In this document: piece by piece, positions 9,130-58,700 of the stretch
Position numbering within the stretch: the first letter of the stretch is position 1
Layout: every line of letters begins with the position of its first letter
Assembly: GCF_000002865.3 (NCBI RefSeq)
Contig: NW_001865062.1
Span: 80,795 to 144,794 of the forward strand
DNA: 64,000 nucleotides
DNA from: Monosiga brevicollis MX1
Taxonomy: Eukaryota > Opisthokonta > Choanoflagellata > Craspedida > Salpingoecidae
Direction of reading: 5' to 3'
Translations under genes and position numbers: made by a program
Notes under the pieces: model-generated
What the model saw: only the letters and a program-made list of their open reading frames with translations
Told to the model about the DNA's origin: nothing
Databases searched by the model: none

Positions 9130-11607
<2,478 letters not shown>

Positions 11608-25768: not shown

Positions 25769-28700
25769 ATGGCGTCTGGTAACGCAGAGGAGGAGGGGGG
25801 GATGGCCACGGGCGGCGTCACCTCGAACCGGGTGACCGGGCGGCGACCTACACGGGACGAGCGCTTTCGCGCCATCCGGAGTGGTGTGCATCGTGGCTTG
25901 GATGCCTACAGTCATACGCTGACGACGCCCTTTGGTGCACGGCGCATGGTCTATGCCGACTACGTGGCATCTGGGCGTAGCCTGCACGGCATTGAAGCTT
26001 TCATGGCGGAGCAGGTTGGCACGCGGTTGCGCGGCCAGTGAAAAGTTTGACCTTTTTTTCTGATAGCAAGTTGCTCATGTGGTGCGTTGATGCACGCCTG
26101 GCCGCGCAGGTCCTGCCCAGTTATGCCAACACCCATACGACCACCAACGCGACGGGCCGACAAACCACCCACTTTCGAGAAGAAGCACGCCTTATTGTGC
26201 GAAACGTGACGCGTGCCTCCGAGCATGATGCAGTACGTGTACTCAAGGCGCGCCCCGCATTGGCAGCCTGCGGGGCTGGCGTCAGGTTGCCGTGTCGGTT
26301 GTGCTGATGCTCATTGTATCCCATTTGCCTGGCTTCAGGTGCTTTTCGTGCCCCATGGCGTAACCGGCGCGGTCCACCGGCTTATTCACATGCTGGACCT
26401 GCGGCGCCGACCGCCAGGATCCGTCACGGTACTCATCGGTCCCCATGAGCACCACAGCAACATCTTGCCTTGGACCGATGCAGGCTGTACAATGGTCTCC
26501 ATTGCGGAGACAGCCGCAGGCGTCGTTGATCTCGCCGACCTGCAGGCACAGCTCACCACACACGCCCGTTCCGAGCAGTTGCTCATCGGCGCTTTTAGCG
26601 CTGCCTCCAATGTCACCGGCGTTCTGGCCCCGGTGGATGATATCACTGCCTTGCTCCACGAACACGGTGCCCTGGCCGTATGGGACTATGCTACCGCTGG
26701 CCCCTATGTGCCCCTGAACATGAATCCCATCCCGGGCGATGGCCGCAATCTATGCAAGGATGCCGTCTTCCTCTCTCCTCACAAGTTTCCCGGTGGACCA
26801 CAAACCGACGGTGCGTACACTCTCAAGCGATGGGGCGCGCATCGGCAACGCCCTTGCTCCAACACAATTGATTCATCATTTGATTTGGCCTGCCTCAACC
26901 GCGGGTTGGTTGCAGGCGTTCTGGTTGTGAAGAAGGCCTTGTGCCGCAACACGAGCCCCTTGGCCGGCGGGGGTGGTTCGGTCTTCTACGTGCGTCAAGG
27001 TGCGCACCGCTACACCAAAGCAGAGGAGACGCGGGAAGAGGGTGGCACGCCGGCTATCCTTGGTGATATTCGCGCAGGTCAGCAATCATGCTTCCTGCGT
27101 CTTTTGTTTTGGGTTTCCTTTTCTTTTCCTTGACCCCAAATTCACATTCACATTCACATCTCATCTCGTACGCACGCGCGGTGGAGCAGGCTTGGTGCTC
27201 AAGCTGCATCAGGATGCCGGGGCCGACTTGATTCTGGCCCATGAACTCGAACTAACGCATCATGCCCTGCAGCGACTCGCACAGTGTCCCAATCTGGTGC
27301 TTTTGGGGCCCGCGTCAGAATACCGCCTTCCCATCTTTAGCTTTGTGGTTCGCCACCACAGTGGCAGGTATGCTCAGAGCACCAGCGTACTCCTTGACTT
27401 CAGACAACCCATCTTGCCAGGCTCTACGTTTTGTTGACTCATCCAGCTCAATGACCCCCTGTCGTTTCTCAAAAAAAGGTGGCTACACCACAATTTTGTG
27501 GTGACCTTGCTCAATGATTTGTTTGGCGTGCAAGCCCGCGGTGGCTGTGCCTGCGCGGGGCCCTACGCACATAAGCTTTTGGGACTTGGGCCTGTTGCAG
27601 CCCAGTAAGCGATTGCTGCTCCCCATGCTCTCCCAGTGTAACGTGCCAGTACTGGACGCCGGCAAGATGAAGAACTCACTTGTTTTCTTTCTCGTGTGGC
27701 ACATCTCAACTCAAGGTTGGAGGCAGCTTTGAGCGAAGACGATCGGCTCGATCGGGATCACCTTCGCCGCCGCGGCGAATACAGTTGCAACGAAGCTCTT
27801 CGACCAGGCTTCGCCCGCTTCAACCTAACTTGGTTCATGACGCAGGCCGAGGTCGACTTCATCCTTGATGCCGTTGCGTTTGTCGCCGAGCATGGTGCTC
27901 AGTTTTTGGCCCACTATCGGTTGAACGCCGAGACTGGCGAGTGGGTTCATCAGCGCGATGCCCGGAGCAAGCAACGGCGCTGGCTCTCTACCTTCCAGGT
28001 GCGCTGTGCAGCTTTGGACATGGTGCATCCGTCTCACTGTCTCCCCTCATCTCGGTGCCTACCCTGCCTTTGTGCCAGCTGGTTGACACACCCCGCCCTG
28101 CAACACCCCCTACACTTGGGTTTGCCGACCTCTTGCAAGAGGCGCGCGAGCTCGTCTCCACCCTAACCAAGTACGTCTTCACCGCAGGCTGTTGCATCAA
28201 CCCTCCAGTTGTCTGCGGTGCCGACACAGCACTTGCCCTGCGGTCATACATCCTCTGGAGAAGCACCCTCATTCTTTTTCATCCTCTTGCCTCCACGCAG
28301 CAAGGCACCCCGGCACGTGGGTGCATCAGGCTTAGCACCGACGGTCGAGCATCTACGCTGGTTCGTTTACCCCGGCGAGACTGCTGCCTTGGAGCCCGGG
28401 CAATCCTGTCCGTTGCAGCCACACGTGTACGCTTCCAGCTCTGCGCCAGTCACACACCAGGCACAGTCCACGACCTCGACGGACTCGGCGTCAGCTGCCA
28501 CCGCATCCGAGGCACCAACGCCAGCGTCCATGACTGACTCGGCGCCCACCTGGCATGCCGCACCTCGCGACGCCTTGCTTGATATGATTGCTGGCCAGGA
28601 GGCTGCTATTGCACAGCTCCAAGTGCAGGTTGAAGCACTGCAAGAGCAACTTGTTCAACACCGCGCCACAGAGCCCAACGTGCCGGCACAGGCCACAGAG

Positions 28701-30209
28701 AGCTTGGATGTCTCTGTGCCAGCCTGCCCTCTGCGGCGTCCAGACACCTTTGTTGAGACGGCAGTCAACGGGACCATTGTACCAAATGGCAGAGCTGCCG
28801 GCCCAGCCCATGTAGATAAGCCGCGCTTTCATGCTCCACCCAAGACCATCATGAAACCAGTCTTGAAGGTTTGTCAATTCGCACGAGGCAGACAAATGGC
28901 GCTTGACCTGTTTTCACATGGCGGCGTTGGGTCGGGATGGCGGGGTGTGACTTGTCTCCTGATCCCGCCACTTTGAAACACGCACGCATGATGATGCATT
29001 CACATGATTTCATGCATCCACGTGTGCTTTTACGGGTGCTAGGCCATCCGCGACTTTGACATGCTGCGCGATGGAGATCGCGTCTTGGTTTGCGTCTCCG
29101 GTGGCAAAGACTCGCTCAGTCTGGTTCACGTGATGAAGCAGCTTCAGTACAAGCTGCGCGGCGATGGCATCAACATCCAGCTTGGGGCTGCCACGGTGGA
29201 CCCTGGGACGGAGGCCTTCGATCCCTCACCATTGCAAGCATACTTTCAGCAACTGGGGATGCCCTATTTTTACGAGGAACAGTGTATCATGGACGATGCC
29301 ATGAACATTGAAAAGTGCGGTTAATGCTTCCGCTCGTTGCTGTCTTGTTTCGCATAGAAACTGCGTTTCTCTTTCTCACACTGTTACTGCTGATCACAGT
29401 CTGGCCAGCATCTGCAGTTTCTGTGCACGCATGAAGCGTGGTCGACTCTACGCATGCGCTCGACGCGAGGGCTACAATGTTCTCATGTTTGGCCAGCATC
29501 TCGTACGTTCATCTCGCGTTGCACTGCCCTTGGCCTCCTGCAGTTGCCTCTTGTCTTTGTCGCTGACACTGCCCTTGGCTTGAACCCTCTCTTCCACGCA
29601 TATCTTTTGCCGTATAGGATGACATGGCTGAGAGTCTCATGATGTCGCTTTTCCACAACGGCTACTTGCGCACGATGAAGGTGCGCCGCTTCACTTCGTA
29701 GCCATCGTATTGCAGGAGCATCGCACAATTTTTTTTGAATCATATTTGATTTCTTTGACCATACTTCTCCTTCTTTCCTTAGGCACACTACGTCGTGGCC
29801 GAAGGGGATCTGCGCATGGCTCGTCCGTTTGTTTACGTCCGGTGTGTGTCCTTGCCCATGGTGAAACCGGATCAATCTTGCTCGGTCAAACTGCCTTTTT
29901 TTCATTTTCTCTCACCTAACCGTCAATCGCCCTCCAACTGGCAGTGAGAAAGATTTGCGAATGTTTGCAGAGCATCCCGCTGTTCGGCTGCCAGTCATTT
30001 CAGAGAACTGCCCGGCATGCTTTGCCGAGCCCACCGAGCGCCACCGCGTCAAGCAGTTGCTGGCATCGCAAGAGCTCTTGTATCCTCAGCTTTTCCGCAG
30101 TCTTTTGGCTGCAATGATGCCTTTGCTGTCCAAGGATCGAACAGGATTAGAAACGCAACGAAACAAGCCCGCCTCTTCCAACGAGTTTGAAGACGATGAA
30201 GGGGCCTGA
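25769..30209 (+). CDS. Fusion protein: class V aminotransferase (cysteine desulfurase-like) plus TtcA-like PP-loop tRNA thiolase
   Basis: The N-terminal half is a PLP enzyme of the NifS/SufS-like fold, expected to release sulfur from cysteine. The start reads MASGNAEEEGG, with MVYADYVASGRSLHG next; LFVPHGVTGAVHRLIHML, IGPHEHHSNILPWTDAG and AVWDYATAGPYVPLNMNP follow. The PLP lysine is in LSPHKFPGG (about 26783), and the Cys loop is RGGCACAGPYAHKLLG (about 27536-27580). The domain ends with RWFVYPGETAALEP (about 28360). The same exon continues through an Ala/Ser-rich linker and a coiled coil (AAIAQLQVQVEALQEQLVQH), then splices to AIRDFDMLRDGDRVLVCVSG, the PP-loop SGGKDS (29097-29114), CSFCARMKRGRLYACARREG (CxxC at 29413-29424), FGQHLDDMAESLMMSLFHN and ENCPACFAEPTERHRVKQLL. 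These match TtcA, including the three 4Fe-4S cysteine positions. The tail is acidic. I read one gene, with the fusion joined inside one exon. Confidence 0.82.
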
Positions 30210-30524: not shown

Positions 30525-34059
<3,535 letters not shown>

Positions 34060-34111
34060 GGGGCGATTTGATCAGCATCGACGTGCCACTGATAGGGTTG
34101 ATTCATTGATA

Positions 34112-40766: not shown

Positions 40767-43700
40767 ATGGCTCGCATGGCCCCCAGGCCCGCCTTGGGGG
40801 GTCATTCTCTCGCGTTTGCCGTCCTGTGTGCTTTCTTCTTTCTTCTGACCTCAAGTGAGAAATCTATCCTGGCCATGCCTTTGCAACACGAGCGCCCCCC
40901 AAAACCTTGCCCTCCCATCCCTCTCCCCCTCCCCGTCCTGGCAGCGTTCATTTGCCTCTCACACTTTTGAACGTGCTGACTTCAAATCACAGATCTTGGC
41001 AGTGCCAACATTTTGATCCGCAAAGCCCAGGGCCCGTTCGCGATTCCAGAGGCCGAGAGTGCCATCTATGTGGCCCAGCTCCTCGTTGAACCAACGGATA
41101 ATGTATCGGTTGCCATCGAGACGCTGAATCGGACCGTCTTTATCCCCAACAGCGAGCTAACTATGATTGCTGGAGACGAGTGGGATCAAGCCTCTGCCTT
41201 TGAAATCTACGCGGTCGATGACCGCCTCATCCGCCCCTCACCCTACACCGCAGAGGTCGAAATCACCACAAGCTCTGGTGACTCAAACTTTCAACTTCCA
41301 GTTCTCAAAATTGTCATCTTGTTGTCCGAACGTGATCAAGGTCTGGCGCGTTTTCTTCGCCTCTCTTTCGCTCCATCTACTTCAAACCGTTGGCTACACG
41401 ACGACTGCGTACGAGACTAACCATTGACATCCCGGCAGGTGGCCTCGTTGTTGAGCTCAGCGACTGGTATCCGTTTCCGGATGCCATCCCCGAAGGTCGC
41501 TACGCAGACTACGATCTCTCCTTGCCCACGCAACCCTACGCCGATGTTCACGTGGTGGCAGCAGAGGCCAATGATGGCGATTGGCTTCAACTCGAGCCCT
41601 CTTCTTTCTCGTTCACGCCACTCAATTGGAACATCAGTCAACGCATGAGGGTCCACGCTATCGACAATTCCCGGGCAGAGACAAGTGATGTTGTGAAAAC
41701 GGCCATTGCCTTTAACCTTTCCAGTACTGATGAGTCGTACAACAATGGTTCCTCCGTAGCCCCTCTGGAGGTTTGGGTCGAGGACAACGACGAGCGTAAG
41801 TCCCATGTCGCGTCACCGCCCTCGGGTTGTTACAACAAAATGTGCGACCCATCCTCTCATCATCTCTCACTTGCCATCTCTGTTCGTTTGCTCTCCAACC
41901 CTCATGTGCTTTGCGCCCGCACAGCCGTGGCATTGGTTGCAGCAGGCTTGTCCTGGCAGGCGTCCCGCTCTGATTTTCGTGTCAACGTGCAGTTTGCTCT
42001 TCAAATCACCACGGATGCCAATGTCACAAGCCAGTTTGATGTCCCCATGACGTTTCGACCCACCACTTCGAGTGCCGAACAATTTGTGAGCCTGGCATTT
42101 ACTGCTCTACACCAGGCAAACGGCTGGACAACCGCCACGGCCACGTTCAATCACAGCTACGATTTGACAAATCTCCGTGCTGCAACATGGATTGCCCAGT
42201 TTCAGACCTGCTGTCGCTCCGAGGCCCTTGCATCCAACGCTGGCACAACAGTCCTGCTTACGACGCGCATTAGCATTCCCACAACGAACGTGTACCGGAG
42301 TCCAGCGATTCCTGTGCTTCCCGTCTTGCACATGCCCGCCTCACACCCGTCGACAATTCAGCTGAGCGCCCCAGCCAGCTCCGTGACAGTCTTTTCCCTG
42401 GTTGGTACTGAGGGCTACCAAGATGCGCGCAGCGGCCCCACGCATGCCGTGTCGCTAGATGTCACCGCTGGACAGCTGCTCATCGATCCAAGGGCCTGGG
42501 ACATGGACGGGCAATTGCACGAAGTGCTCGTTCAGCTCGAGGATGTGGCCACTGGTGCCACTTCCGTTGTCGGCATCCCCTTTATCCTTGATGCTGCTAC
42601 ATCAGCTGCGCATCCGCTGACCCTCGGTTACGAGGTGCTTCCTTGGTATTTTGCACCTGCCAACTCCTCGGTGGATATTGAGCTCCCCGGGCGAAACTGC
42701 TCTCTCGCATCGCTCAACACAGATGCGGCACAAGTACTTGTCAATCCTCAGGATGCACAGGGCTATATCACCGCCACGTTGACCCCCGCATTCACCGGTT
42801 ACGAGACTATTTGCTTTGACTGCGATGCATCTCAGGCGGTAGTTTGTGCCGCCTTCCTGGCCGAAGCGCCCACCTCCCTTCACGATGTTCAGACCGCTGG
42901 GCTGACAGTCAGCACTACATTCGTTTCCGGAACAGCCTTTGAACCCCTGAGTCTCCTGGAACTCACTGATAACGGGCACTATCTGCAATATGTCACTCTG
43001 TCGCTTGCCAATGACGGAGCTTACAACGCCTCTCTGGCCAGTAGCGTCACGGAATCAACCATCGAAGTAGCGACCCTGAGTGACGCGGCTCTTGTCATGC
43101 GGGGACCAGCTCTTGCCTCATCTTTTCAGCGCCTGCTACGCCGGCTCCGCTTCACTGTGACGGCACCCGATGGCCAGGATGCCATCCAGCTCTCTGGTTT
43201 TCTTGGGGTGCGCACGACGTCCTCTTATGATGTTCACCACGTCCACATCAACCTGACCCGTACCTTTCCCGCTCCAGCGCTCGATCTCGATCTCATGGAC
43301 CGCACCGCAACAGACGGCAACAGCCGCGTTCTCTACTTGGACCAAGATCATGAAACCTCCGTGAATCTGTTTCTGAGTGAAAATGTGCTTCTCACCGGCC
43401 ACGGCGATCGCATTTCCGCCACCGATGTTCGTATCACCAATGCCATTGACACCCCCAACGAGGTCCTTGCTGTGACGTATCATGAAGCCGAGCCTCTATT
43501 GCCGCCCATTGTCATTGAAAGTGGCCGCGTCGACATGGCCATCGAAGATGCCACTGTCACAGAGCACACTCTTTTGGTAGCCGACAGCTTCTTGCCCAGT
43601 CGCGTTGAAGTAATTTTGGACCTGCGCCACTCTTACATTGGCGATTTGCGCATCGAACTGCAACACGACGGCATTACAATTGCTCTTGCCGAGCACCCGG

Positions 43701-46700
43701 GAGGCGTCGATTGCTCTGCTGATGACCTGATTGGTGTCAAGTTTTCCTCACATGCCAACTTTTCCCTCAGCCCCGGCAGTGATGAGAGCGAGCCAGGAAT
43801 TTGCCAAACCCATTTTGGTAGCTTGGTCAGTCCAGCAGGCAACCTTGACCGCTTTCTCTCAACAAATACGGCAGGAAATTGGACCCTGCGCGTTTACGAT
43901 ACGGCCGAAGAAGACACAGGCGCACTGTACAACTGGGATCTGGTGTTTCATCGCTATGTCGTCAACTCAAGCACATTTCGTCACAACTCACAGCTCTTTC
44001 AGTGGAACTTTGGTCCAGCTCTTACTCTGAGTGGCACATCACCCTTGCAGTTGAGCTTGGACGCCCTCGGAGCGCTTGGCGATGTGCAAATCTGGCTTTC
44101 AACCTCAGTGCCTCAAAATACTGTGAACATCACCTTGAAAAAGTCTGACGTGACTGTTCATTTGAACTCCGCTTCGGGCAACTGCTCTGGCCGCCAATGC
44201 GTCTACATCTCTGGTCTGACCCCGGCGACCGTGCGCCAGCCCGCTGTCGTGCGCAATTCAACGCAACTGCAGAACATTCTGCGTCATCCCATCGAAGGAT
44301 CCTGGCTTTTTGAGATTTCAATGGCGGCTGAGGCCGGGGACCGCCCGGAGCTGTTGGCCATCGAGCTCGTAGCCGCCGTTGTACCGAATGTTAACGTATC
44401 CTTTGATGCCACCAGTGCACACCTTGAATTGCACGGCATTGATGCCGCTGCAGCCTACGAAGAGCTCTTGCAAAGCGTGACTTATTCCAACAGTCACACC
44501 AACATCACTGGCGACGTTCTGCGTACCCTCAACGTATCTGTATCCACAATGCACGGAGCCCGCGTGTCCAAGACGGCGAGTATCAGCGTGCATCACCTCA
44601 ATCCTGTGAATTTGACGAGCATTCTTGAAGATGAGGTTGATTCGGCGGGTGACTCGGTACAGAGTATTGTCACACACGCAAATTCTCCAGAGATCGACTT
44701 TTTGACCACTCGTGATCTGCTGGGAATTGCCGTGGTGCATCTAGACACGACTCATGGTCACTGGGAATATCGCTTGAGCACATCGGGCTCTTGGATCAGC
44801 TTTCCAGTGTGTAGCACAACAAATGCAACTTTACTCGACCGCCTTGCAGCCGTGCGCTTCGTACCAGTCAAAGACTTTCATGAAACCGCAGCGCTAGGTT
44901 ATGTACTGTGGGATGTTACTCAGGACGAAGCTTTGGCCGCCCTTCCCAGTGGCACACATGACATTGATATTGCTCAAAATACTGTCGTCTTCCCACCCCA
45001 AATCGGCACAGCTACCATCCGGGTCTTGAGCGTTAACGACAGCCCTCGCCTGTTTCCGGGTGTTGCCATGTCGAGTTATGACGAGGATGTTCGGACCGTG
45101 GAGAATCTGGGTGATGCTGTTGACGACATTGTTTCTGGCTACTACCTCGATGTCGACCAAGCCACACCAAGCGGCGAGGACGCTGTGGTCGGTATTGCCA
45201 TTGTGGGCGCTGATAGTACATATGGCACGTGGCAATACTCCTGCAATGGGGTGTCTTACACCAACATTTTTGGCAATCGCTTGGCAGACGGATCGCTTTA
45301 CCCTCGTGATCCCTCACCAACTCAGGCGACTTTGTTGGGTGCTGCTTGCACTGTTCGCTTTTTGCCCGTGACTAACTTCAATACAGACGTCGATGCCAAT
45401 GGGAACCCCTGGACCACGGACGTGCGCCCCTGTCTCGTCATCAAAGGATGGGATAACACTGGCGCCACGCGTGGACAGCAAGGCAAGTATGGTGTCGACA
45501 CGACAGCCACATATGACGGGACGGGCGAATTCAGCCTCAACACCAGTGCCGCATGCATTCAGTTCTTCTCAGTCAACGATAGCCCCAGCATTGTTGGCAC
45601 GGGCCCCAGCACCGAGACAGTGCGCGAGGACAATCGCTATTATCCTCTCGTCTTTCCTGACAACTGGAGCCTCGAGGACCCGGACGATCTCTACGTCTCT
45701 TACATGTATATAAACATGACAGCGCCTGACGGGAGTCAGGAGTCGCTGGCAACCTTGACTTTGTACACCGCCCCGGCAAACCTGGTTGTGAATGGCTACT
45801 ATGGCTCGAACATGCTGCACCTCATTCTCTCTGGCAACAACACACATGCCCTGACTCGGGCACAGGCCACCGCGGCAGCCAAGGCACTGGTGTACACCCA
45901 CGAACTCGAGGAACCGACAAGTGGCTTGCGCACACTTTCCATTCAGATCATGGATAATGATGGTGCGCGGTCCAACATTTACCAACAAAGCTGGTGGCTG
46001 GCAAACGACAACGATGCCCCGGTGCTCAACGTGAGTTTGGTGGCTGGCCATTACGTCGAGGGTGGCGTCCAAACCGCATTAGCCGCAGTGACGCTGCAAG
46101 ATAACGACAACGCCACCCAGGTGCAGGCCGAGGTGGTGCTGACCAATCCCCTCGACGGCCAAGACGACCTGTTGCGGATCAACAGCACTATCGTGGCCAG
46201 CACCTTCCCGGCTTTGACCGTGACATACGATAACAACACCCACACCCTCACCATCACCGGAGAAGATAGCCTTGCCAACTATGTGGCGCTTCTCAGCCAG
46301 GTTGAGTACTACAACAGCCGCTATGACTACGACCGTGGCAACCCCACCGCTGCTACCCGTGTCATCACCGTCAGGACGTTTGACGGCATCGACTGGAGTA
46401 ACACAGCCGAATCCCGTATCACCTTCGAGGCCGTCAATGATGAGCCTTACATCGATCTCGACTCGGCCAGCGCCGCCAGCCAGGACGCCTCGGCTACCTT
46501 TGTCGAAGAATCGGATGGCGTGCTCATTGCTCCCCTTGCGACCATGTTTGACATTGACAATGCGACGTTGGCTGCCGTGCGCCTTACCATCAGCAACCCT
46601 CTGGATGGTGCGGATGAGAGCCTGGGCTACACGCCCTTTGAGGAGAGTGAGGCGGCTGGTAACGGTCAAACACGATTCCGCGTTGTGGACCCTGGTGCCA

Positions 46701-49700
46701 CCTATGATGCTGTTTCCAACAGCCTGACTCTGACGGGTCTTGACACCGTATTGGACTACACACACATTCTCAACCTGGTGTACTACGTCAACCAGGCCGA
46801 CGAGCCCGATGACACAACCCGCCAAGTTGTTGTTGAGGCTTGGGATGGTCTGGCGTGGAGCACACCACGCACAGTCAGTGTGGCCATTGCCATGCTGAAT
46901 GACAGCCCGCGCTTTACTGGCGTGGCACCTGTGGCCCTGGCTATTGATGAGGATGTGGTGAGCTCTGCCAACCCTGGTTTGAGCACGTTTGTCGTGTTGA
47001 GCTCCAATGCCGTGTTGGAGGACGATGACCGAAGCAGTCTGTATGGTTTGGCCGTTGTTGGCGTAGACCAAGCCAACGGCTTATGGCAGTATCGCTTGAC
47101 CTCGGCCGCAGCGTGGACCACCATGTTTTCCGTGTCCGTGAGCCGCACCAGTGCCGTGCTTCTGCCCTCATCCAGTGATGTGAGCATTCGGTTTGTGCCG
47201 GATGCCAACTTTCACGGCGCAGCCACGCTGACCGTGGTTGCATGGGATCAGAGCGATGCCGGTACGCCTGGAGCCATGGTCGACGCGACCTATGCACCCG
47301 ACGGTCGTGGTGCATTTAGCTCGGCCACCACGGATATTGTGGTCAACGTCGCCCCCGTCAATGATGCACCCACTTTCACCAGCGCTGGTGTTCGCTTCCA
47401 GCTGCATGATATACCTGAGGATGATGCTGGTCTGACGGCAAGCACGTGGAATCGCGTGTGGGATGTTCTCAACGGTAGCGGCATTGCCGATGTCGATGAT
47501 GGCAGTAGCTTGCAGGTTCGCGACTATGGCTTGGCGGTGACGGCTGTTGATGCCACCCACGGTTCTTGGAGCGCCTCGGTGGACGGGGGCAGCAGTTGGA
47601 TTGACCTGACTTCGGTGGCGCCGGACCATGCCTTTGTCATGGCCAGTGCGCCGACATCTTCAATGTTGATTCGGTTTGTTCCCGAGGCAGACTACCACGA
47701 GTCGAGTACTTTGACGTATGCCGTGTGGGATGGATCAGATGGTGCCACGCCAGGCACCTATGTAGACGTGGCGGCCGCTGATGCTGTGACGGGTGCTTAC
47801 AGCACGACCCGCGGTTATGCCGACATTCAAGTCCTTTCCGTGAACGACCCTCCAACCATTGTATCTTCCAAAACTGCCACCATGGTCGAAGACTCACCCT
47901 CTCAGCTCGGCACCCGAGTTGACGTCCTGTTCGATCAGGCGTTTGCCGATGTGGACAACACCGACTTTGGTGTTGCTGTTGTTGCTTCGCCCACAACGTA
48001 TGGTGTGTGGTACTACCGATGCAGTGAGATGGCATCTTTTACTGCCATGGTGGGTGATGTCCTGGCAAATGGTCAAGTGTTTCCGACACTGCCATCCCAG
48101 CAATTTGCTACTCTATTGAATGCTGACTGCCGCATTCGCTTTGTACCCACTACAAACTTTAATACACAACAAGATACCACGGGGACAGCATGGCCAGGTG
48201 ATGTACGACCTTTTCTTACTGTTCATGCTTGGGATATGACCACACCGACCACGCTGACGAAGCGCTACGGCCACGATTTGTCAGCGACTTTGTCCTCATC
48301 TAGCAGCCCTTTTAGTTCATCAACAACCCAGCTGCGGATGGCCGTCACGTCTGTCAATGACTTGCCAATCTTCTCAAGCACGATCCTGTCGCACACCTTC
48401 ATGGAAGAGCAAGATCCCCTGGACATAGTGCCGACTTCAGTGACCGTTGCTGACGCAGACAACGCACTGTGCAGTCAAGTGCAGTTGTCCATGGATCGTC
48501 ATGATTTTGCTGATCTACTGCACTGGACTCCTGCAGCCAATGAAAATGTTGCAATCGTCGTCAATACGTCAACGTCGTTGGTGATGACCATTACGTCAAG
48601 CACAAATTCACTCTCCATGTTGCGAGCAAACACTATTCTGCATGAGCTGGTCTTTGTCAACAATCTTAACGAGCCATCTGCTGGAGAGCGTTTAGTCACC
48701 ATCATCATCACCGATGCTGTTGGTGGTAGCACGGTACCTTTAGTCATTGATATTGCAATGGCACTAGTCAATGACCCCCCAATTCTAGACCTTGACAGCA
48801 GCTTTGCTGGAGAGGTCGCATACGCAGATTTAGTGGAAGGAGCCAGTGTCATGGTTGCCCCCGCCGCGACGCTGCAAGATAACGACAACGCCACCCAGGT
48901 GCAGGCCGAGGTGGTGCTGACCAATCCCCTTGACGGCCAAGACGACCTGTTGCGGATCAACAGCACTATCGTGGCCAGCACCTTCCCGGCTTTGACCGTG
49001 ACATACGATAACAACACCCACACCCTCACCATCACCGGAGAAGATAGCCTTGCCAACTATGTGGCGCTTCTCAGCCAGGTTGAGTACTACAACAGCCGCT
49101 ATGACTACGACCGTGGCAACCCCACCGCTGCTACCCGTGTCATCACCGTCAGGACGTTTGACGGCATCGACTGGAGTAACACAGCCGAATCCCGTATCAC
49201 CTTCGAGGCCGTCAATGATGAGCCTTACATCGATCTCGACTCGGCCAGCGCCGCCAGCCAGGACGCCTCGGCTACCTTTGTCGAAGAATCGGATGGCGTG
49301 CTCATTGCTCCCCTTGCGACCATGTTTGACATTGACAATGCGACGTTGGCTGCCGTGCGCCTTACCATCAGCAACCCTCTGGATGGTGCGGATGAGAGCC
49401 TGGGCTACACGCCCTTTGAGGAGAGTGAGGCGGCTGGTAACGGTCAAACACGATTCCGCGTTGTGGACCCTGGTGCCACCTATGATGCTGTTTCCAACAG
49501 CCTGACTCTGACGGGTCTTGACACCGTATTGGACTACACACACATTCTCAACCTGGTGTACTACGTCAACCAGGCCGACGAGCCCGATGACACAACCCGC
49601 CAAGTTGTTGTTGAGGCTTGGGATGGTCTGGCGTGGAGCACACCACGCACAGTCAGTGTGGCCATTGCCATGCTGAATGACAGCCCGCGCTTTACTGGCG

Positions 49701-52700
49701 TGGCACCTGTGGCCCTGGCTATTGATGAGGATGTGGTGAGCTCTGCCAACCCTGGTTTGAGCACGTTTGTCGTGTTGAGCTCCAATGCCGTGTTGGAGGA
49801 CGATGACCGAAGCAGTCTGTATGGTTTGGCCGTTGTTGGCGTAGACCAAGCCAACGGCTTATGGCAGTATCGCTTGACCTCGGCCGCAGCGTGGACCACC
49901 ATGTTTTCCGTGTCCGTGAGCCGCACCAGTGCCGTGCTTCTGCCCTCATCCAGTGATGTGAGCATTCGGTTTGTGCCGGATGCCAACTTTCACGGCGCAG
50001 CCACGCTGACCGTGGTTGCATGGGATCAGAGCGATGCCGGTACGCCTGGAGCCATGGTCGACGCGACCTATGCACCCGACGGTCGTGGTGCATTTAGCTC
50101 GGCCACCACGGATATTGTGGTCAACGTCGCCCCCGTCAATGATGCACCCACTTTCACCAGCGCTGGTGTTCGCTTCCAGCTGCATGATATACCTGAGGAT
50201 GATGCTGGTCTGACGGCAAGCACGTGGAATCGCGTGTGGGATGTTCTCAACGGTAGCGGCATTGCCGATGTCGATGATGGCAGTAGCTTGCAGGTTCGCG
50301 ACTATGGCTTGGCGGTGACGGCTGTTGATGCCACCCACGGTTCTTGGAGCGCCTCGGTGGACGGGGGCAGCAGTTGGATTGACCTGACTTCGGTGGCGCC
50401 GGACCATGCCTTTGTCATGGCCAGTGCGCCGACATCTTCAATGTTGATTCGGTTTGTTCCCGAGGCAGACTACCACGAGTCGAGTACTTTGACGTATGCC
50501 GTGTGGGATGGATCAGATGGTGCCACGCCAGGCACCTATGTAGACGTGGCGGCCGCTGATGCTGTGACGGGTGCTTACAGCACGACCCGCGGTTATGCCG
50601 ACATTCAAGTCCTTTCCGTAAACGATTCCCCTGTTTTGATCAATGGTAGCTATCTGGAGGCCATTCATGAGGACGACTTGGCAAACAACGGCACCTCCCT
50701 TCCTGTTCTTGTTCGCTCGTCGTACTATGATGTTGATCGAGCCACCCCATCCGGTCACAACTCCACCCTCGGCCTTGCTATTACCCAAATTGACCAGCGG
50801 TTTGGCGCTTGGCAATACTCGTGTGACGGCGTTACATTTAAGGACTTTGTTGGCGGTATTCTTATCAACGGCCAGGTCTACCCACCGCGGCCTTTGACCT
50901 CTTCCGCCACCTTGCTGGGTCCTGAGTGCCGCATTCGCTTTGTTCCTGCTGCAAACTTCAACACAGAGTTTGACCTTGCAGGTCGCGTGCGTGCTGCTGA
51001 CGATACCCCATATTTGATCGCAAAAGGATGGGATCATACCGATGGCCGCGTTTCCGGAAGTATTGCCGTTGATACGACCGAGGCCACCACGGCATTCTCC
51101 GCTTTGTCTGCGCGCATTACTCAGAGCGTGGTCTCAGTGAACGATCCACCCGTCATTTTTATTGGTGGCGCTTCCCCACCTTACACAGCCGTCTATGTTG
51201 AGGGTGCCACACCTGTTAGTTTGGCGGTCAATCATTCGGCTCACGTAGTAGATGTCGATAACGCCAATCTTACTCGATTGGCAGTCACCCTTGATGGCAT
51301 CATGGATGGTGCTAACGAGCAGCTGGTGTTCTCAAACTGGAACATCGAAACATCGTCACCTATTGACGTGTTGGGCTTTTCTATCGGTGTTACCTGCCAA
51401 CGCAACAGCTCAACGCTGCGATGTGAAGCGATGGGCCTGGATAACCAGCTTCCCGTTACGGCAGCCAGTGCATTCTTGCAGCATCTTGCCTACGTTAACG
51501 TTCACCCCGAACCCCACAACGGCACGCGCTCGGTGTCAGTATTGGCCGACGATGGTATTGACGTGACACAGCGCAGCATCTCAGTTTCTGTGCAGCTGAT
51601 TGCCGAAAATAAGCCTGTGCTTCAAGCCAGCCAGCCCGTGCTTCAGTTCACGGAACAAGGTGGGCCATTGGGCTTAAGTGTGGCCAATCTTACTCTTCGC
51701 GACGAGGACCACAACAACTATTACTTTGTGCAATCAGCTATGTTGGCACTCACAAGCCCTGATCAGTCCCTTACGACGGATCGCTTGAGCGTGGACTGCA
51801 GCACGAATGGCATCAATGCCCAATTCAACACCTCAACATATGCCCTCAGCTTGAGCGGTGTGGCCACGATTCAAGAGTACCAGACCTGCCTCAACAGTGT
51901 CGTGTTCTCCAACGAAGAAGCAGAGCCTGCTGGCTTTGTGCGCGAGGTACTACTCACGGTGACAGATGATGCATCTTTGACCAGTGTGCCCCTTGTGCTG
52001 ACCATCGAGTTTCAGCTTGTCAACGACAATGCGCCCTTGTTTGACATTGTGGATCGCATTGTATTTTACGAAGATTTCAATACGACGTTGTTCCTGGGCG
52101 ACGCTGTTGCAGTGACCGACGCCGATGAGCCTCTCGTGGTGCCTATGACCGTCAACGCTTCTGAGTACGCCCGCCAGTTCATGTATGACAATCTGACTGT
52201 TTCCGTCACCAATCCTCAGTACGCCGTCGGGACAGAGTACGTATCCTTGTGGTATATGGATCAAGTGCGGTCAGGCTCAGTCGTCGTCATTCCGGGCCCT
52301 GTGAGCCTGGCGACAGTCAACGACATTTTGAGTACCTTGGCCTATCACAACGACGCGGAGGAGACCTTGGGCATTCCGCGCACTGTGCGCTTTGAACTGC
52401 AAGACTCCGTCGGCGTTTACGAGGGCGATCTCCTCGTCACCATCCGTGTTCACAACGATCGTCCCATTGCTTCCAATTTGCAAGGCCCCGTGCCGACGTT
52501 TGTCGAGGACGAATCATCGGTGTTGCTGTTTGGTAGCAGCTTGAGTTTGGATGACAACGATAATGCCACTCTGGCCTCCGTTTCGCTCACCTTGGTTGCC
52601 CCCGTTGACGGAGTCAACGAGACTCTGTTGCTGCTCAACGAGGGCCAGCACGTCAACATTTCTGCCCAGTGTGTGGCCGGTTCTGGCTGTCTGCTGCTGG

Positions 52701-55700
52701 GCCCGGCTTCTCTTCGCAACTTTGAAGCCGCTCTTCGGGACATGGCCTATCAGCATCGTGATGGTGGCGACCCCACGCCTGGCCAGCGACTCATTAACAT
52801 TGTTCTGCATGATGGCCTGCGCACGTCTATTCTCTACAACGCATCTGTTCTAGTACAGGCTGTGAATGATGCCCCAGTGGTTCTTGAGCCGGAAGCCACT
52901 CTGCAAAATGTAACATTCATTGAGGAAGGCCCCGCTGTGGCAGTGTTTCCGTCACCCCTTGAGTTTTATGATGCTGATAACACCGTTGCTTCGCGTATTA
53001 CCTTGGTACTCAATTCGAGTCGGGAGGAACACGTGCTATTGGCAAACCGCTTATCATGGCCGTTGCTGTCTGCCCAAGCTGTGTGTGAAGAAGGCTGTGC
53101 TTATGCTCGCACACAAGCTGATCTTCGCTACGTTGTCAACAACACCGTGGCTTGGAGTCAGGCTGACGCATGGCTGGCAACAGCATATGATACGGCCATC
53201 TTCGCAGAGCTGGCAGCGCTCAGTGCCAACCGCTCCGAGGATTTGCGGCGCTTGCTCATTCTCGCCACCGTCCGTCAGCTTGACGCCCTTGAAGACAAAA
53301 TTACCGACTACCTTCATCAAGTTGACGAGCTGGGTGTTTACAATCCCGACCGCATTACCTTTAGCTTTGAAGACTCTCAAGTCATTGATGTGCCGGCCTT
53401 TCAAAACGACATTGTGGATGTCTACTTTACGTTGACAAACCCAAGCCGACAAGCACGCGACGCTGCATGCCCGTCACATGCCGAGGACACTCCCGATTGT
53501 GCGACTGCAGAGCAGAATCATGCCAATGCACATGCCAACGCCGTGGCCACGCTTCTGGAGCCAGCTGACTTACTTCCCATCATCAATTTGGACGTCTTTG
53601 CCACTTGCATGACTGCGGAGCTAGCCGACCATCTGGTCGTTTATTGGCACACAGAGCCATCTGGATTGCCATTCACAGAACAGCCGCCTCACAATCTCAA
53701 CAACTCTGACATCGTGTCGGAGTACGTTGTGGACGAGCTGTACGCCACGTTGCGCTTGAATGCCAACCGAGCCTTTGCTAATCAAGCTGCTCATGATGTT
53801 GTGGTGAAAGCTCTTGCACAAGTGTTGCCAAGCACCTGGCTGGCCATTTTCAATGCCACTCAAGGCCTTTCGGACCATGTGCAATACATTATGCCAAACG
53901 CTTCCTCGCCGACCGTTGACGATGGTTCGGGCTCCGGAGACCTGGGTGACTTTAGCTCCGGTTGGACCTCAGGGTCCGGCGAAGAGCAACTCTCCGGCTC
54001 TGGTGCTGGCGGGGGCAATAATAACAACGACAAGATGCCGTTTACTCTGGTGTTGACCGATGAGGCTCTTGGTCAGCTGACCGCGGCCGGCACATACCTC
54101 GGCTGGCTAGGCTGGAATGAGACTTCCAGCAGCAGCTCGCTCTACATGGGCTTGATCGACTCCTCACTTCAAAACCACTATGGCTACCACATTGTGGACT
54201 CTACTGCTGCGATTCACTTTGTCAATCTCAGCTCGGATGTCCTGAATGCCACCGAGATGGCCCTGATCAACGAGGGCGAGGCATGCCCCCTCTTGTGTGA
54301 GCGGGGTTTGGCAGCAAGTGAAACGGCCACCCAGCTGCGAGCCAGCTGTGTTGACGCTTGCTTTGACTTGGGTGATGAAATGGAGGTGTGCCAGATCGGC
54401 TGCACGCTAGCACGAGCTTCTCTGAAGCAGATTATTGTGGCCAGCAATGCCACGCTCCTCGAGGCTGCCGTTGCAATCGGAAATGTGCACTTTGTGAGCT
54501 ATCGGGATGAAGAGATTGAGGCCCAAGTACCCATCACATTGCAAATCGTCGATCCGGAGGGCTTGGCAGGACCTCAATACACCGTTTTCGTGGAGCTGGT
54601 GCCCGTCAATGATGCGCCCCGCCTGTTGGCTCTGGTCAATGGCAGCGTTAACTACGTGGAAGATGCCACACCCATTCCGCTGTTTTCTTTGGCTCTCAGT
54701 GACGCTGACGACACGACCGTTTCACTCATTCGGGTGGAGCTCCTCGATGCCACGCCCTATGAGTCCGTCTTTGTCCCTGATTTGCCGACCACTGGTCCGT
54801 CTTCACCCGCTGAGCGCGCCGCAGCGATAGGATCTGATTACGAGCGCGAACTCTTGGCGCAAAACCTGACGGATGCTGCGGCATGGGTGCGGGCTGGCGC
54901 CGTCCTCGAGCTTTACGGCCCGATGTCTTTGACTGATGCTGTACAGCTCATTGAGCGCATCTCGTACTACAACCTTCAGCATGACACTGCCTTTGATGCC
55001 CCACGAGTGCTCAACTTGATGGTTCTGGACCCACACAACGCCAGCAGCAACCTGCTCACAACCAATGTGACAGTGCTGGCGACGGACAATGTTCCATTGG
55101 CCCAAGTGGCTGCCTTGCCCGTGCTTGAAGAGGCTCTCGAGGACACGGCATCTGTTTTGTTTGACCCACGGCCATATTTCCTGGATGCAGAGGCCCGCCC
55201 CAATGCAACGGACGCCTATGATACCCTGACCACGGAGATTGTGGCGACCGGTGCCTGGACCAACGCAAGCTTGGACGGTGCTGTCATTCGTTTCACACCC
55301 TTGACGGAGGACTATGGAGATCGTGTTGTCACATATCGAGTGTGCGCGTCGGGCCAATGCTCGGTTGAGCACAACATGACACTTCGTTTGCAGCCTGTCA
55401 ATGATGCCCCTCGGCCGCGCTACCCAGTCCTCAATGCATCCGTTGTCGAGGATACCGAGACTGTGCTCAGCTTGGACGATTTCTATTATGACGTGGAAGA
55501 CTACAAGCTAGAGCCTTTCCAGCCCCCCAATGCGACAGTCGAGCCACTTACGGTGACCATTCCTGCAGCCCAGCCCAGTACCACGGGCCTGCTGTCACTT
55601 GTGCTCGACCCTGATGCGCGACAAGTCACATTTACACCCGCCGAAAACTATGTCGGACCAGCTTCGATCGCTTTCAGCGTATGTGATTCAGCAGGCGCCT

Positions 55701-58700
55701 GCACAAACATGACGCTTCACCTGACCATCACACCAGTCAATGACGCCATTGCAGTGGCACCGGCCGTGGGGCTTGCCATCACGGAGGACATTAATACCAC
55801 AATTGAGATTATGGCCAGTGATGTGGAGGACGATGCGTGCCCGTACAACGCTGCCATCACTGCTTTCTGTACACCCATTTTGGCCGACTTGATAGTGCCG
55901 CCCACCCACGGTGTGGCGTCGCTGTCTTATAATTCAAGTCGAGGCAACCATGTTCTCACTGTTCATCCAGCAGCCGACTACGCTGGACCCGATACGATCG
56001 TGGTGCAGCTCTGCGATAGCCAGGCTCTGTGTGTGAATCACACCATCGATCTCACTGTCTTGCCGGTGAATGATGCGCCTCGCATCGCTCTTCGCAATGT
56101 CACAATCGACGAGGACGTTCGCAGCACGCTGGCTCTTATGCCGTACCTGTCCGATCCTGATGACAGCATCTGGGGGACTGGGATCACTGTCACTTCACTC
56201 TCCTCCAACCTCAACGTGAGCTACGATGCAAGTACTGACGCTTTGGTGTTGGTTTCAGCTCTCAACTACTTTGGCGCTGCTGCCTTCCAGCTGCAGGTCT
56301 GCTCTACTACCCTGCCCTGTGTTCAACAGGTTGTTGGGGTCCAGATTCGACCTGTTAACGATGTGCCTGTGGCGTTGGCGCTGAACGTCACTGTCTTTGA
56401 GGATGTGCCGCAAAACTTCCCTCTCTTCCCCCTCACTTCTGACGTTGAGAACCGCCGTCGCTCTGTGAGTCCAGAAGATCTGAGCATCGTCTCTTTCCCA
56501 ACCCATGGTCAAGTCAACTACTCTGCCGATTTGGGAACAGCCACCTACACGCCTGATGCCGACTACTTTGGCACGGACGAGCTGACGTATCAAATTTGCG
56601 ATGACGAGGGCGCATGTTCGCGTGGGCTGATTGGAATCACAGTCCTTCCAGTCAATGACCCGCCCCGTCTCTCGGCCAACTACGCTGCACTCCTGCCGTA
56701 CGACGTTGAGGAAGATAGCATGAATATGGTGGCGGTGTATGCCATGTACAACGATCCCGACCTGCCCGAGTCATTTGCAGATGCCATGACGCGCGATGAA
56801 GAGGTCGCGTTACGCTTGGATATCATGGTGCCTCCGGCGCATGGTGAAGTCAACCCCTTTTCTCAGTACGGCATCATTAGCTACGACCCAGCAAGCGATT
56901 ACGTGGGCATGGACAGCTTTGTGTTCCGAGTGTGCGACAAATGTAGTTCGGAGCGTGATCTTGAGCTGGGACGCATCGTCCCCAGCACAGATCCAGCATG
57001 CGTGCGTCAGCGGGATCTCACTTTTAGCTCCGAGGGCTGCCTCAACGTCACCGTTGAGCTCCGTGTCGTCAATATCAATGATGCCCCCGTCGTGCCGCCC
57101 CTGGCTAAGATTACGTCTGTGAATGTGAATGCGGTTTTTGACCCGCTTGCGCACGTATCGGACGAGGACGAAAGCCAGTACGCTACCTTGCTTGAGCAAA
57201 ACCTCACTCCAGCTGACTTTGGCCTGGTGGAGGAGACCGATCTCGTTGTCACGTCCCTCAGCGTCAGCATCGCTCCAAGCCATGGTGTGGCGAGCATTGT
57301 ACTCAGCAACACAACGTACGAGCTGGTCTATCAGCCTGATACCGATTTTGCCGGCGCTGACACATTCTCGTATAGCATTTGCGACCATGCTGGGGCGTGC
57401 ACGCAGTCACGGGTGCGCGTGCAGGTGGCCACGCCGGCCCCCGAAATTGCATCGGTGACGGTGCTTCAAGCCTGCTATGACTTGGAGGACGACACCCGGG
57501 AGGTGCAGCTCAACAGCTATACTTGTACGGGACGCATGGATACGGACGCCCGCTATGGAGCGCTCGACCGATGGCTGGTTGCCTTTGATCGTGACACCAA
57601 TATGCCACCGTACGGAGTAGCAGACTTGGTCATCTCGCAGAGCGACCTGGAGCGTCTCTTCCAGTTTTCGCCCAACTTGACGACCTCAACGGCAAGCGGC
57701 GCATACTACGGCCTGTGGCGAAACGCCCGTGAACTGGTGATTGTCATGGTAGATGTGGGCTACCCAGAGCCAACTATGAAAACGAGTCGCACAACATTTG
57801 CATTGCGCGCCTCGGAAAGCGTTGACTGCAGTGGTTTTGCTCAAAGTAGTGAGGTTTATGAGGTGGTGACGCCCAACCGCTTGTGTTTGCAGGATGCAGC
57901 AGGGCTGAGCCGACACAGCAATGCCAGCTTCGCTGGCTTCAGGGGTCATTTTGGCCTTGCATTCCCCCTGGTGATCGGCGCGAACGTGGTGCAGCCCATC
58001 AATGTGCAAGGCAGCTACCTGGGCAGTGGTACTGTCATCACCATGTCTCTGCAGCCCCCGCTGTCGGCGAGTACGATGGCGCGGCTTTGCATGCTGGACA
58101 GCGCGGACATTTTTGATATGAGCGTGCTGGGCTCCAACGGAGAGAGCTCGATCGAGTGTCAGGTGGTGTTTGACGATGGTACGGTGGAGCTGATTGACAT
58201 GACTGAGACAGAGTACCGCTGCACATTCGAGCCCGAGAGCATTCCTGCGTCCAGTTGCGGTGCATCGGCTACAAGCGGTGCGCGTCGACGTCGTGACGCA
58301 GCGGGGTCACCAAGCACAATGCAGTTGGTGATGGACATTGCCCGACTCACAAACGCACTTGTGGATCCTACGGACTCTGAAGCACTGCTGGCAGCCCTGC
58401 AGGCTGGCCTCCTCCACCAAGGTATGGCTGCACTCGTTGCCGACGATACGGGTGGCAACTCCACCGAACTTCTGGCCGACTTTGAGGAGCGGCTGGAGCA
58501 ATACCTATTGGACAATATGGAGGCGTCGGGCGTGTATCTCCGTGGCAGCCCAGTACAAACACCTGTCATTAGCAGCGTCGAGCTCTCTGGTTCCGACGGC
58601 TTCCTGATTGCAGGCAGCACTCTCTCAATTAAATTCGATCGGGACACGAACACACCTGCCAGCGCCTCTGAGGATCTGACCATTCTGGGCAGTGATCTGG

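What the first reader, a model, noticed from the sequence alone, without database searches (positions are those of the whole stretch)
25769..30209. Cysteine desulfurase-like domain fused to a TtcA-type tRNA thiolase
Seen: a class V PLP domain with SPHK and RGGCACAGP motifs, then in the same exon a linker and coiled coil leading into a PP-loop SGGKDS domain with CxxC and CPAC cysteines. Known: in bacteria IscS-type desulfurases supply sulfur to TtcA, which makes 2-thiocytidine at tRNA position 32 using ATP and a 4Fe-4S cluster. Inference: the fusion would channel sulfur within one polypeptide from cysteine to tRNA. Eukaryotes usually thiolate tRNA through Ncs6/Ncs2-Urm1 or Mtu1, so a TtcA-type fusion is notable.
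Basis: partly seen in the sequence, partly recalled or inferred. Interest (0 to 1): 0.8.

Follow-up and report, generated by a model that had tools for sequence, protein, structure and literature searches.

The report
Fused sulfur-donor and tRNA-thiolating enzyme
A single-celled relative of animals carries one protein that joins an enzyme freeing sulfur from cysteine to an enzyme of the kind that puts sulfur into transfer RNA, and the same unstudied fusion turns up in many animals and protists, although this kind of RNA sulfur mark has so far been described only in bacteria and archaea.

The parts
25769..30209 (+). Whole gene, start codon to stop, 14 exons, 1003 aa (exons 25769-26014, 26110-26232, 26339-26810, 26916-27077, 27190-27367, 27479-27604, 27716-27998, 28079-28170, 28301-28868, 29043-29314, 29400-29502, 29618-29680, 29783-29841, 29945-30209)
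   Evidence: translation identical to P0001 = MONBRDRAFT_33813
25949..27575 (+). Class V PLP domain (residues 61-426, interrupted by introns), SufS-type cysteine desulfurase fold
26774..26785 (+). SPHK, with the lysine K272 expected to bind PLP
27537..27563 (+). RGGCACAGP: C419 aligns with the catalytic Cys of B. subtilis SufS; C417 is a second, near-invariant Cys where SufS has His
28301..28868 (+). Exon 9: junction exon with RWFVYPGE (28356-28379), linker, predicted helix 648-682 (28560-28664) and PPKTIMKP (28836-28859)
28722..28742 (+). ACPLRRP in the linker (Cys703): recurrent short Cys motif, candidate sulfur relay (exploratory)
29082..29975 (+). PP-loop ATP pyrophosphatase domain, TtcA family group I (residues 764-926, interrupted by introns)
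   Evidence: PF01171 4.7e-13; TtcA NF007972 1e-52
29097..29114 (+). SGGKDS PP-motif
29413..29424 (+). CSFC (C846, C849), aligned with E. coli TtcA C122 and C125
29491..29623 (+). GQHLDD (split by an intron), replaces GHxxDD of E. coli-type TtcA
30009..30020 (+). CPAC (C938, C941), aligned with E. coli TtcA C210 and C213

Best explanation
The protein is a bifunctional RNA thiolase. Its N-terminal SufS-like domain takes sulfur from cysteine as a persulfide on C419 (inferred from homology). The sulfur passes, perhaps by way of C417 and a Cys in the flexible linker, to the C-terminal TtcA-type domain, which would hold a 4Fe-4S cluster on three of the four cysteines C846, C849, C938, C941, activate a base of tRNA with ATP through SGGKDS, and replace its oxygen by sulfur. 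The likeliest product is 2-thiocytidine at position 32 of tRNA. Shown here: one gene, one frame, both domains with their catalytic residues kept, the junction in one exon, wide conservation. Inferred: persulfide transfer inside the polypeptide, the cluster, tRNA as substrate, C32 as site. Confidence is for a sulfur-feeding fusion that thiolates tRNA; for s2C32 in particular about 0.5.
For: Catalytic residues: over the 120 homologues, K272 105 of 106 (14 gaps), C417 and C419 113 of 114 (6 gaps), K772 119 of 120, C846, C849, C938, C941 120 of 120; over 113 further proteins, K272, C417, C419 and each residue of SGGKDS 113 of 113, the four CxxC cysteines 112 of 113. SufS fold. TtcA is the best NCBIfam match of the PP-loop half, 1e-52, against TtuA 1.3e-14, TilS 4.7e-14, NcsA 4.1e-8. 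Among 252 genomes of one bacterial class (Gammaproteobacteria by the named locus L049) 113 have TtcA over the cut-off and 84 the type closest to ours (my count of rows over 200 bits); only G039 has both, against about 38 if independent: the two types seem to replace each other, as isofunctional genes do. Thioredoxin-like domains occur at the C end of 3 fusions (P0280, P0315, P0336) and before the PP-loop of P0010, which has no desulfurase; TtcA needs ATP and a reductant in vitro (PMC5372745, passage). Precedents of a desulfurase feeding a PP-loop enzyme: DndA-DndC (PMC10853773, passages), and an engineered MnmA-YrvO fusion that works in vivo (PMC10219651, passages).
Against: The reviews know no s2C in eukaryotes (passages). 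Score under the TtcA equivalog cut-off, 31% identity to E. coli TtcA, GQHLDD for GHxxDD: the target base may differ. Bacterial relatives of the two halves are not neighbours where I looked (0 of 80 loci; none beside the 14 bacterial desulfurase loci, flanks of about 1.5 kb), so no operon supports a pairing older than the fusion. Mutual exclusion in bacteria ignores kinship between the genomes. The linker Cys motif was defined after seeing the linkers. In the engineered case MnmA without its desulfurase also worked, in one of four attempts, so fusion is not needed there.
Confidence: 0.7

Rival explanations
1. A thiolase of the same build, but for another base or RNA than C32 (another tRNA position, a mitochondrial tRNA, or another RNA).
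For: GHxxDD of E. coli-type TtcA is replaced in 46 of 46 sampled eukaryotic rows (GQHLDD 34, AQHLDD 9, three single variants); score under the TtcA cut-off.
Against: The bacterial type with the same motif is alone in its genome or absent where E. coli-type TtcA occurs: 195 of 196 genomes with either type have only one, which suits a shared function. Group I enzymes with another target were not tested.
Confidence: 0.35
2. The desulfurase half mainly builds or repairs the iron-sulfur cluster of its own PP-loop half; the sulfur put into RNA comes from elsewhere.
For: In E. coli IscS and IscU are needed for s2C through cluster assembly, and the true sulfur donor is unsettled (PMC5372745, PMC3980101, passages).
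Against: Type II desulfurases hand persulfide to a dedicated acceptor (PMC10011822, PMC11408855, starts of abstracts); cluster assembly uses a scaffold, and Pfam finds no further domain here.
Confidence: 0.2
3. The fused enzyme thiolates something other than RNA, for example DNA (as DndA with DndC) or a small molecule (as LarE).
For: PP-loop enzymes fed by desulfurases include DndC (PMC10853773, passages).
Against: Best family match by far is TtcA, and the nine best of the 11 solved-structure matches of this half are tRNA thiolases or lysidine synthetases.
Confidence: 0.07
4. Annotation artefact: two neighbouring genes read as one.
For: The deposited M. brevicollis model is a prediction; I saw no transcript of this species.
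Against: Exon 9 joins both parts in one frame; both domains in 116 of 120 and 120 of 120 listed homologues, some of them labelled as assembled transcripts.
Confidence: 0.02

Closest known systems
TtcA (E. coli b1344), tRNA cytidine(32) 2-sulfurtransferase, group I of the TtcA/TtuA family
   Same: PP-loop SGGKDS, two CxxC motifs at aligned places
   Different: 31% identity, under the NF007972 cut-off, GQHLDD for GHHRDD, fused to its own desulfurase
TtcA-like proteins of Gammaproteobacteria, many of them sulfur oxidisers (Acidithiobacillus, Chromatiales, Thioglobus)
   Same: 49-57% identity in the 80 loci kept of 253 relatives; same motifs in 22 sampled rows
   Different: No relative of the desulfurase half among the open frames of the 80 fetched loci
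SufS, type II cysteine desulfurase
   Different: 20-27% identity, C417 where SufS has His, C-terminal extension of about 160 residues, fused PP-loop domain instead of SufE/SufU
Free-standing extended desulfurases of bacteria (L107, L108, P0235 and others)
   Same: RGGCSCAGP and the RWF..P motif in L107, L108 and P0235
   Different: No PP-loop domain; L109 lacks the RWF motif
Ncs6/Ctu1, NcsA, TtuA (group II)
   Same: PP-loop superfamily, tRNA 2-thiolation
   Different: Five CxxC/H motifs by definition (PMC3980101, passage) against two here; TtuA/NcsA on a separate branch; the genome has separate NcsA-like exons, 24-47 bits, under that family's cut-off
DndA-DndC, DNA phosphorothioation
   Same: Desulfurase handing sulfur to a PP-loop enzyme with a 4Fe-4S cluster (PMC10853773, passages)
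   Different: Two proteins, other PP-loop family, DNA target
SufS-SufU fusion of Monocercomonoides
   Same: Eukaryotic desulfurase fused to an acceptor (PMC6006210, passage)
   Different: Iron-sulfur assembly, not RNA

Membership tests
TtcA family, group I | PP-motif SGGxDS | tested here: met
   SGGKDS at 769-774; 46 of 46 sampled eukaryotic rows
TtcA family, group I | Two CxxC motifs and no more | tested here: met
   CSFC and CPAC only, no CxxH in residues 737-1003; definition from PMC3980101 (passage)
TtcA family, group I | Phylogenetic place apart from group II | tested here: met
   TtuA (2 rows) and NcsA (1 row) split off with SH-aLRT 96; these rows are partial and long-branched, Ncs6 was not included
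TtcA equivalog NF007972 (E. coli type) | Score over the curated cut-off of 272 bits | tested here: not met
   179.2 bits
TtcA equivalog NF007972 (E. coli type) | GHxxDD motif | tested here: not met
   GQHLDD
TtcA equivalog NF007972 (E. coli type) | Makes s2C32 with a 4Fe-4S cluster | not testable with these tools
   Needs enzymology and tRNA mass spectrometry
SufS, type II cysteine desulfurase | Fold | tested here: met
SufS, type II cysteine desulfurase | PLP lysine and catalytic Cys in the RxGxxC motif | tested here: met
   K272 and C419 align with SufS residues of these roles (the role of the lysine is recalled)
SufS, type II cysteine desulfurase | TIGR01979 score over 475.1 bits | tested here: not met
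   129.7 bits: SufS-like, not SufS
SufS, type II cysteine desulfurase | Activation by SufE or SufU | not testable with these tools
   The PP-loop half may play this part; inference
Ncs6/NcsA/TtuA, group II | Five CxxC/H motifs | tested here: not met
   Two CxxC, no CxxH
TilS, lysidine synthetase | Score over the TIGR02432 cut-off of 93.6 bits | tested here: not met
   52.7 bits

The most novel reading that the evidence does not exclude
An ancient, self-sufficient sulfur-to-tRNA machine, formed by fusing two bacterial-type enzymes and kept in animals and in widely separate protist lineages, puts a thio mark, probably s2C32, into eukaryotic tRNA, a mark now regarded as absent from eukaryotes. 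Sulfur travels from the C417-x-C419 pair over a mobile linker cysteine to the cluster of the thiolase half.
Probability: 0.4. Interest if true: 0.82.

Novelty: new variant of a known kind. Interest (0 to 1): 0.62.

Why it matters
Eukaryotic tRNA thiolation is described through Ncs6/Urm1 and Mtu1. A third, TtcA-type route that carries its own sulfur donor and is found from ciliates and oomycetes to corals, molluscs and insects would add an enzyme class to eukaryotic tRNA biology and predicts a thionucleoside that should be looked for in invertebrates and protists. It makes a direct question testable: is there s2C in eukaryotic tRNA? A single chain that does both steps would also be a clean system for the unsettled question of where TtcA's sulfur comes from.

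Tried and rejected
Two-genes artefact: rejected (exon 9; homologues). Group II membership: rejected. Giant-virus or phage carriers: two scans of viral contigs gave 38 and 52 pattern stretches, none confirmed. Bacterial operon of the two halves: none among the open frames of the 80 TtcA-type loci (flanks of varying length), none beside the 14 desulfurase loci (about 1.5 kb each side).

Bacterial donor of the PP-loop half: the quick tree put eukaryotes beside Acidithiobacillus (SH-aLRT 98), but the careful tree made the 22 bacteria of this type one group (100/97), so I claim no donor. One eukaryotic PP-loop clade: starred in the quick tree (96); in the careful tree the eukaryotes are not one group, nor in any of 200 bootstrap trees, yet the AU test does not reject one group (p 0.571, and the tree with them held together is slightly better). 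So single origin is open on this half.

The PP-loop half has no structure match of its own: desulfurases fill the fold lists. The second structure job (P0010, no alignment) gave pLDDT 38.8 and was dropped. tRNA genes of the own genome: 59 places listed, loci not cut out, so C32 could not be read.

Absence from vertebrates, fungi, plants or flies: not claimed. Only the best 120 of 895, 7997 and 4316 hits were listed. An earlier count of 109 of 120 with both halves came from alignment columns; profile matches give 116, the other four (P0010, P0104, P0113, P0116) having the PP-loop half only.

Literature: of ten searches, nine aimed at TtcA, s2C or such fusions and one at SufS; their listings, often cut (for instance 30 of 460), showed no paper on this fusion. 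The library lacks most subscription papers and the TtcA enzyme paper. Of 13 papers I saw passages found by terms and of one of them one whole section (PMC12071701): it lists s2C among nucleosides analysed in human cell lines; whether it was detected I did not see. PMC10298058 (coconut) bought s2C as a standard; the passages I saw report no detection.

Full report
What is there. The finding lies in a choanoflagellate genome: P0001, MONBRDRAFT_33813 of Monosiga brevicollis MX1, matches the query at 100%, and my hand-built model of 14 exons with 13 GT-AG introns is identical to it over all 1003 residues. Pfam sees two domains only: Aminotran_5 at 61-426 (1e-42) and ATP_bind_3 at 764-926 (4.7e-13). 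Exon 9 (28301-28868) runs in one frame from RWFVYPGE, a motif also present in free-standing relatives of the first half (P0235, L107, L108), through the linker to PPKTIMKP, the start of the second half. So the junction is in the DNA, not a product of gene prediction.

The second half. Best NCBIfam match is TtcA, 1e-52, 179 bits, under the cut-off of 272; TtuA, TilS and NcsA follow far behind. It has exactly two CxxC motifs, the stated mark of group I of the family (PMC3980101, passage), aligned with E. coli C122, C125, C210, C213. Identity to E. coli TtcA is 31%, to the 80 bacterial loci kept of 253 relatives 49-57% (a capped list found by two peptide patterns). In 6 of 6 such genomes this was the only match of full length to the TtcA model, 203-230 bits. 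In 252 genomes of the class, TtcA over the cut-off occurs in 113 and our type in 84 (rows over 200 bits counted by hand); only G039 has both, and 56 have no match at the thresholds used. Independence would predict about 38 with both. Kinship inflates such a contrast, yet it suggests that the two types do the same job. The motif GHxxDD, described as recognising RNA (PMC4048286, passage), is GQHLDD or a variant here and in the matching bacterial type. That is the main sequence argument for a changed target.

The linker. The model gives a helix at 648-682 and low confidence at 608-649 and 682-731, that is, two folded bodies on a flexible tether. Tether length runs from 52 to 684 residues, median 237.5, in 118 of the 120 homologues. 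A short motif, Cys with a hydrophobic residue and then basic residues, as in ACPLRRP here, recurs in 25 of 104 linkers left after removing near-copies (last 110 residues of each), against 2.5 (s.d. 1.5) after shuffling; the reversed motif and a Ser version do not (4 and 8 of 104, expected 3.3 and 8.8). I chose the pattern after seeing the linkers, shuffling ignores kinship, and most linkers lack it, so this is a lead only.

How far it reaches. Of the 120 proteins listed, 116 match profiles of both halves. Their names include cnidarians, sponges, placozoans, echinoderms, hemichordates, amphioxus, tunicates, molluscs, annelids, tardigrades, ticks, crustaceans and insects, besides unnamed protist transcripts; two labels (P0059, P0101) I recall as Ichthyosporea. 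A search with the second fusion of the same genome (G000:C44) listed 120 proteins, 120 with both halves: oomycetes, the ciliates Blepharisma and Stentor, Guillardia, Naegleria, Acrasis, Hondaea, the brown alga Pylaiella, Salpingoeca. Some carry automatic names such as ttcA. In a desulfurase tree of 79 rows that I chose, the 38 fused eukaryotic proteins, all 15 sampled free-standing animal copies and two metagenome copies form one group (SH-aLRT 98), so these free-standing copies probably lost the PP-loop half; the two free-standing copies of M. brevicollis (C31, C49, partial) fall outside. In the PP-loop tree a single eukaryotic group is starred in the quick search, absent from the careful tree and from its 200 bootstrap trees, and not rejected by the AU test. 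An early fusion with later spread or loss fits best, but I cannot show one origin, date it or name the donor.

How it works. From the parts: cysteine is desulfurated on PLP, a persulfide forms on C419, sulfur moves to the second half, ATP activates the base, and sulfur enters the RNA with the help of a cluster held by three of the four CxxC cysteines. None of these steps was measured. Type II desulfurases protect their persulfide and need a partner (PMC10011822 and PMC11408855, starts of abstracts), so a fused acceptor makes sense. Desulfurase to PP-loop transfer has precedents in DndA-DndC and in MnmA-YrvO, which works as an engineered fusion, although MnmA alone also worked there in one of four attempts. 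Thioredoxin-like domains stand at the C end of P0280, P0315 and P0336, and before the PP-loop of P0010, which fits a reaction that needs reduction. The genome keeps separate NcsA-like exons, so the fusion probably does not stand in for U34 thiolation.

What is known. Three reviews place s2C in bacteria and archaea (PMC7694415, PMC5372739, PMC5372745; passages), and a 2024 review names TtcA for bacterial tRNA (PMC12710937, passage). The literature searches listed under Tried and rejected gave no study of the eukaryotic fusion. The proteins themselves are in public databases, many as uncharacterized. I therefore call it a new variant of a known kind: TtcA-like and SufS-like by build, a strict member of neither curated family.

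Noticed in passing
G000:C44:84681-88546 (L017): Second desulfurase/PP-loop fusion in the same genome, with a C2H2-type insert in the desulfurase domain; a regular expression finds such a pattern in the N-terminal part of 22 of 114 fusions, among them ciliates and Salpingoeca.
   Followed up: partly
G000:C31:80048-80875 (L018) and G000:C49:357505-358401 (L019): Two free-standing relatives of the desulfurase half, placed outside the eukaryotic fused group in the tree.
   Followed up: partly
P0280, P0315, P0336, P0010: Thioredoxin-like domain added to the fusion at its C end (three proteins) or in front of a PP-loop domain without desulfurase (P0010).
   Followed up: partly
window 41336-60106 +: One open frame of 6256 aa, with a proprotein-convertase P-domain and cadherin-like/Big_9 repeats.
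   Followed up: no
window 31888-34071 -: Adenylate/guanylate cyclase domain followed by a weak AAA_16 match, in a frame that begins with a long Arg-Glu repeat.
   Followed up: no
window 10234-11607 +: Flavin-binding monooxygenase-like open frame.
   Followed up: no
L121 (E. coli ttcA, b1344): A review names TtcA cysteines 122, 125 and 222 (PMC5372745, passage), but the annotated K-12 protein has Cys at 122, 125, 210 and 213 and none at 222.
   Followed up: no
Gammaproteobacteria: Two TtcA types that almost never occur in the same genome (1 of 196).
   Followed up: partly
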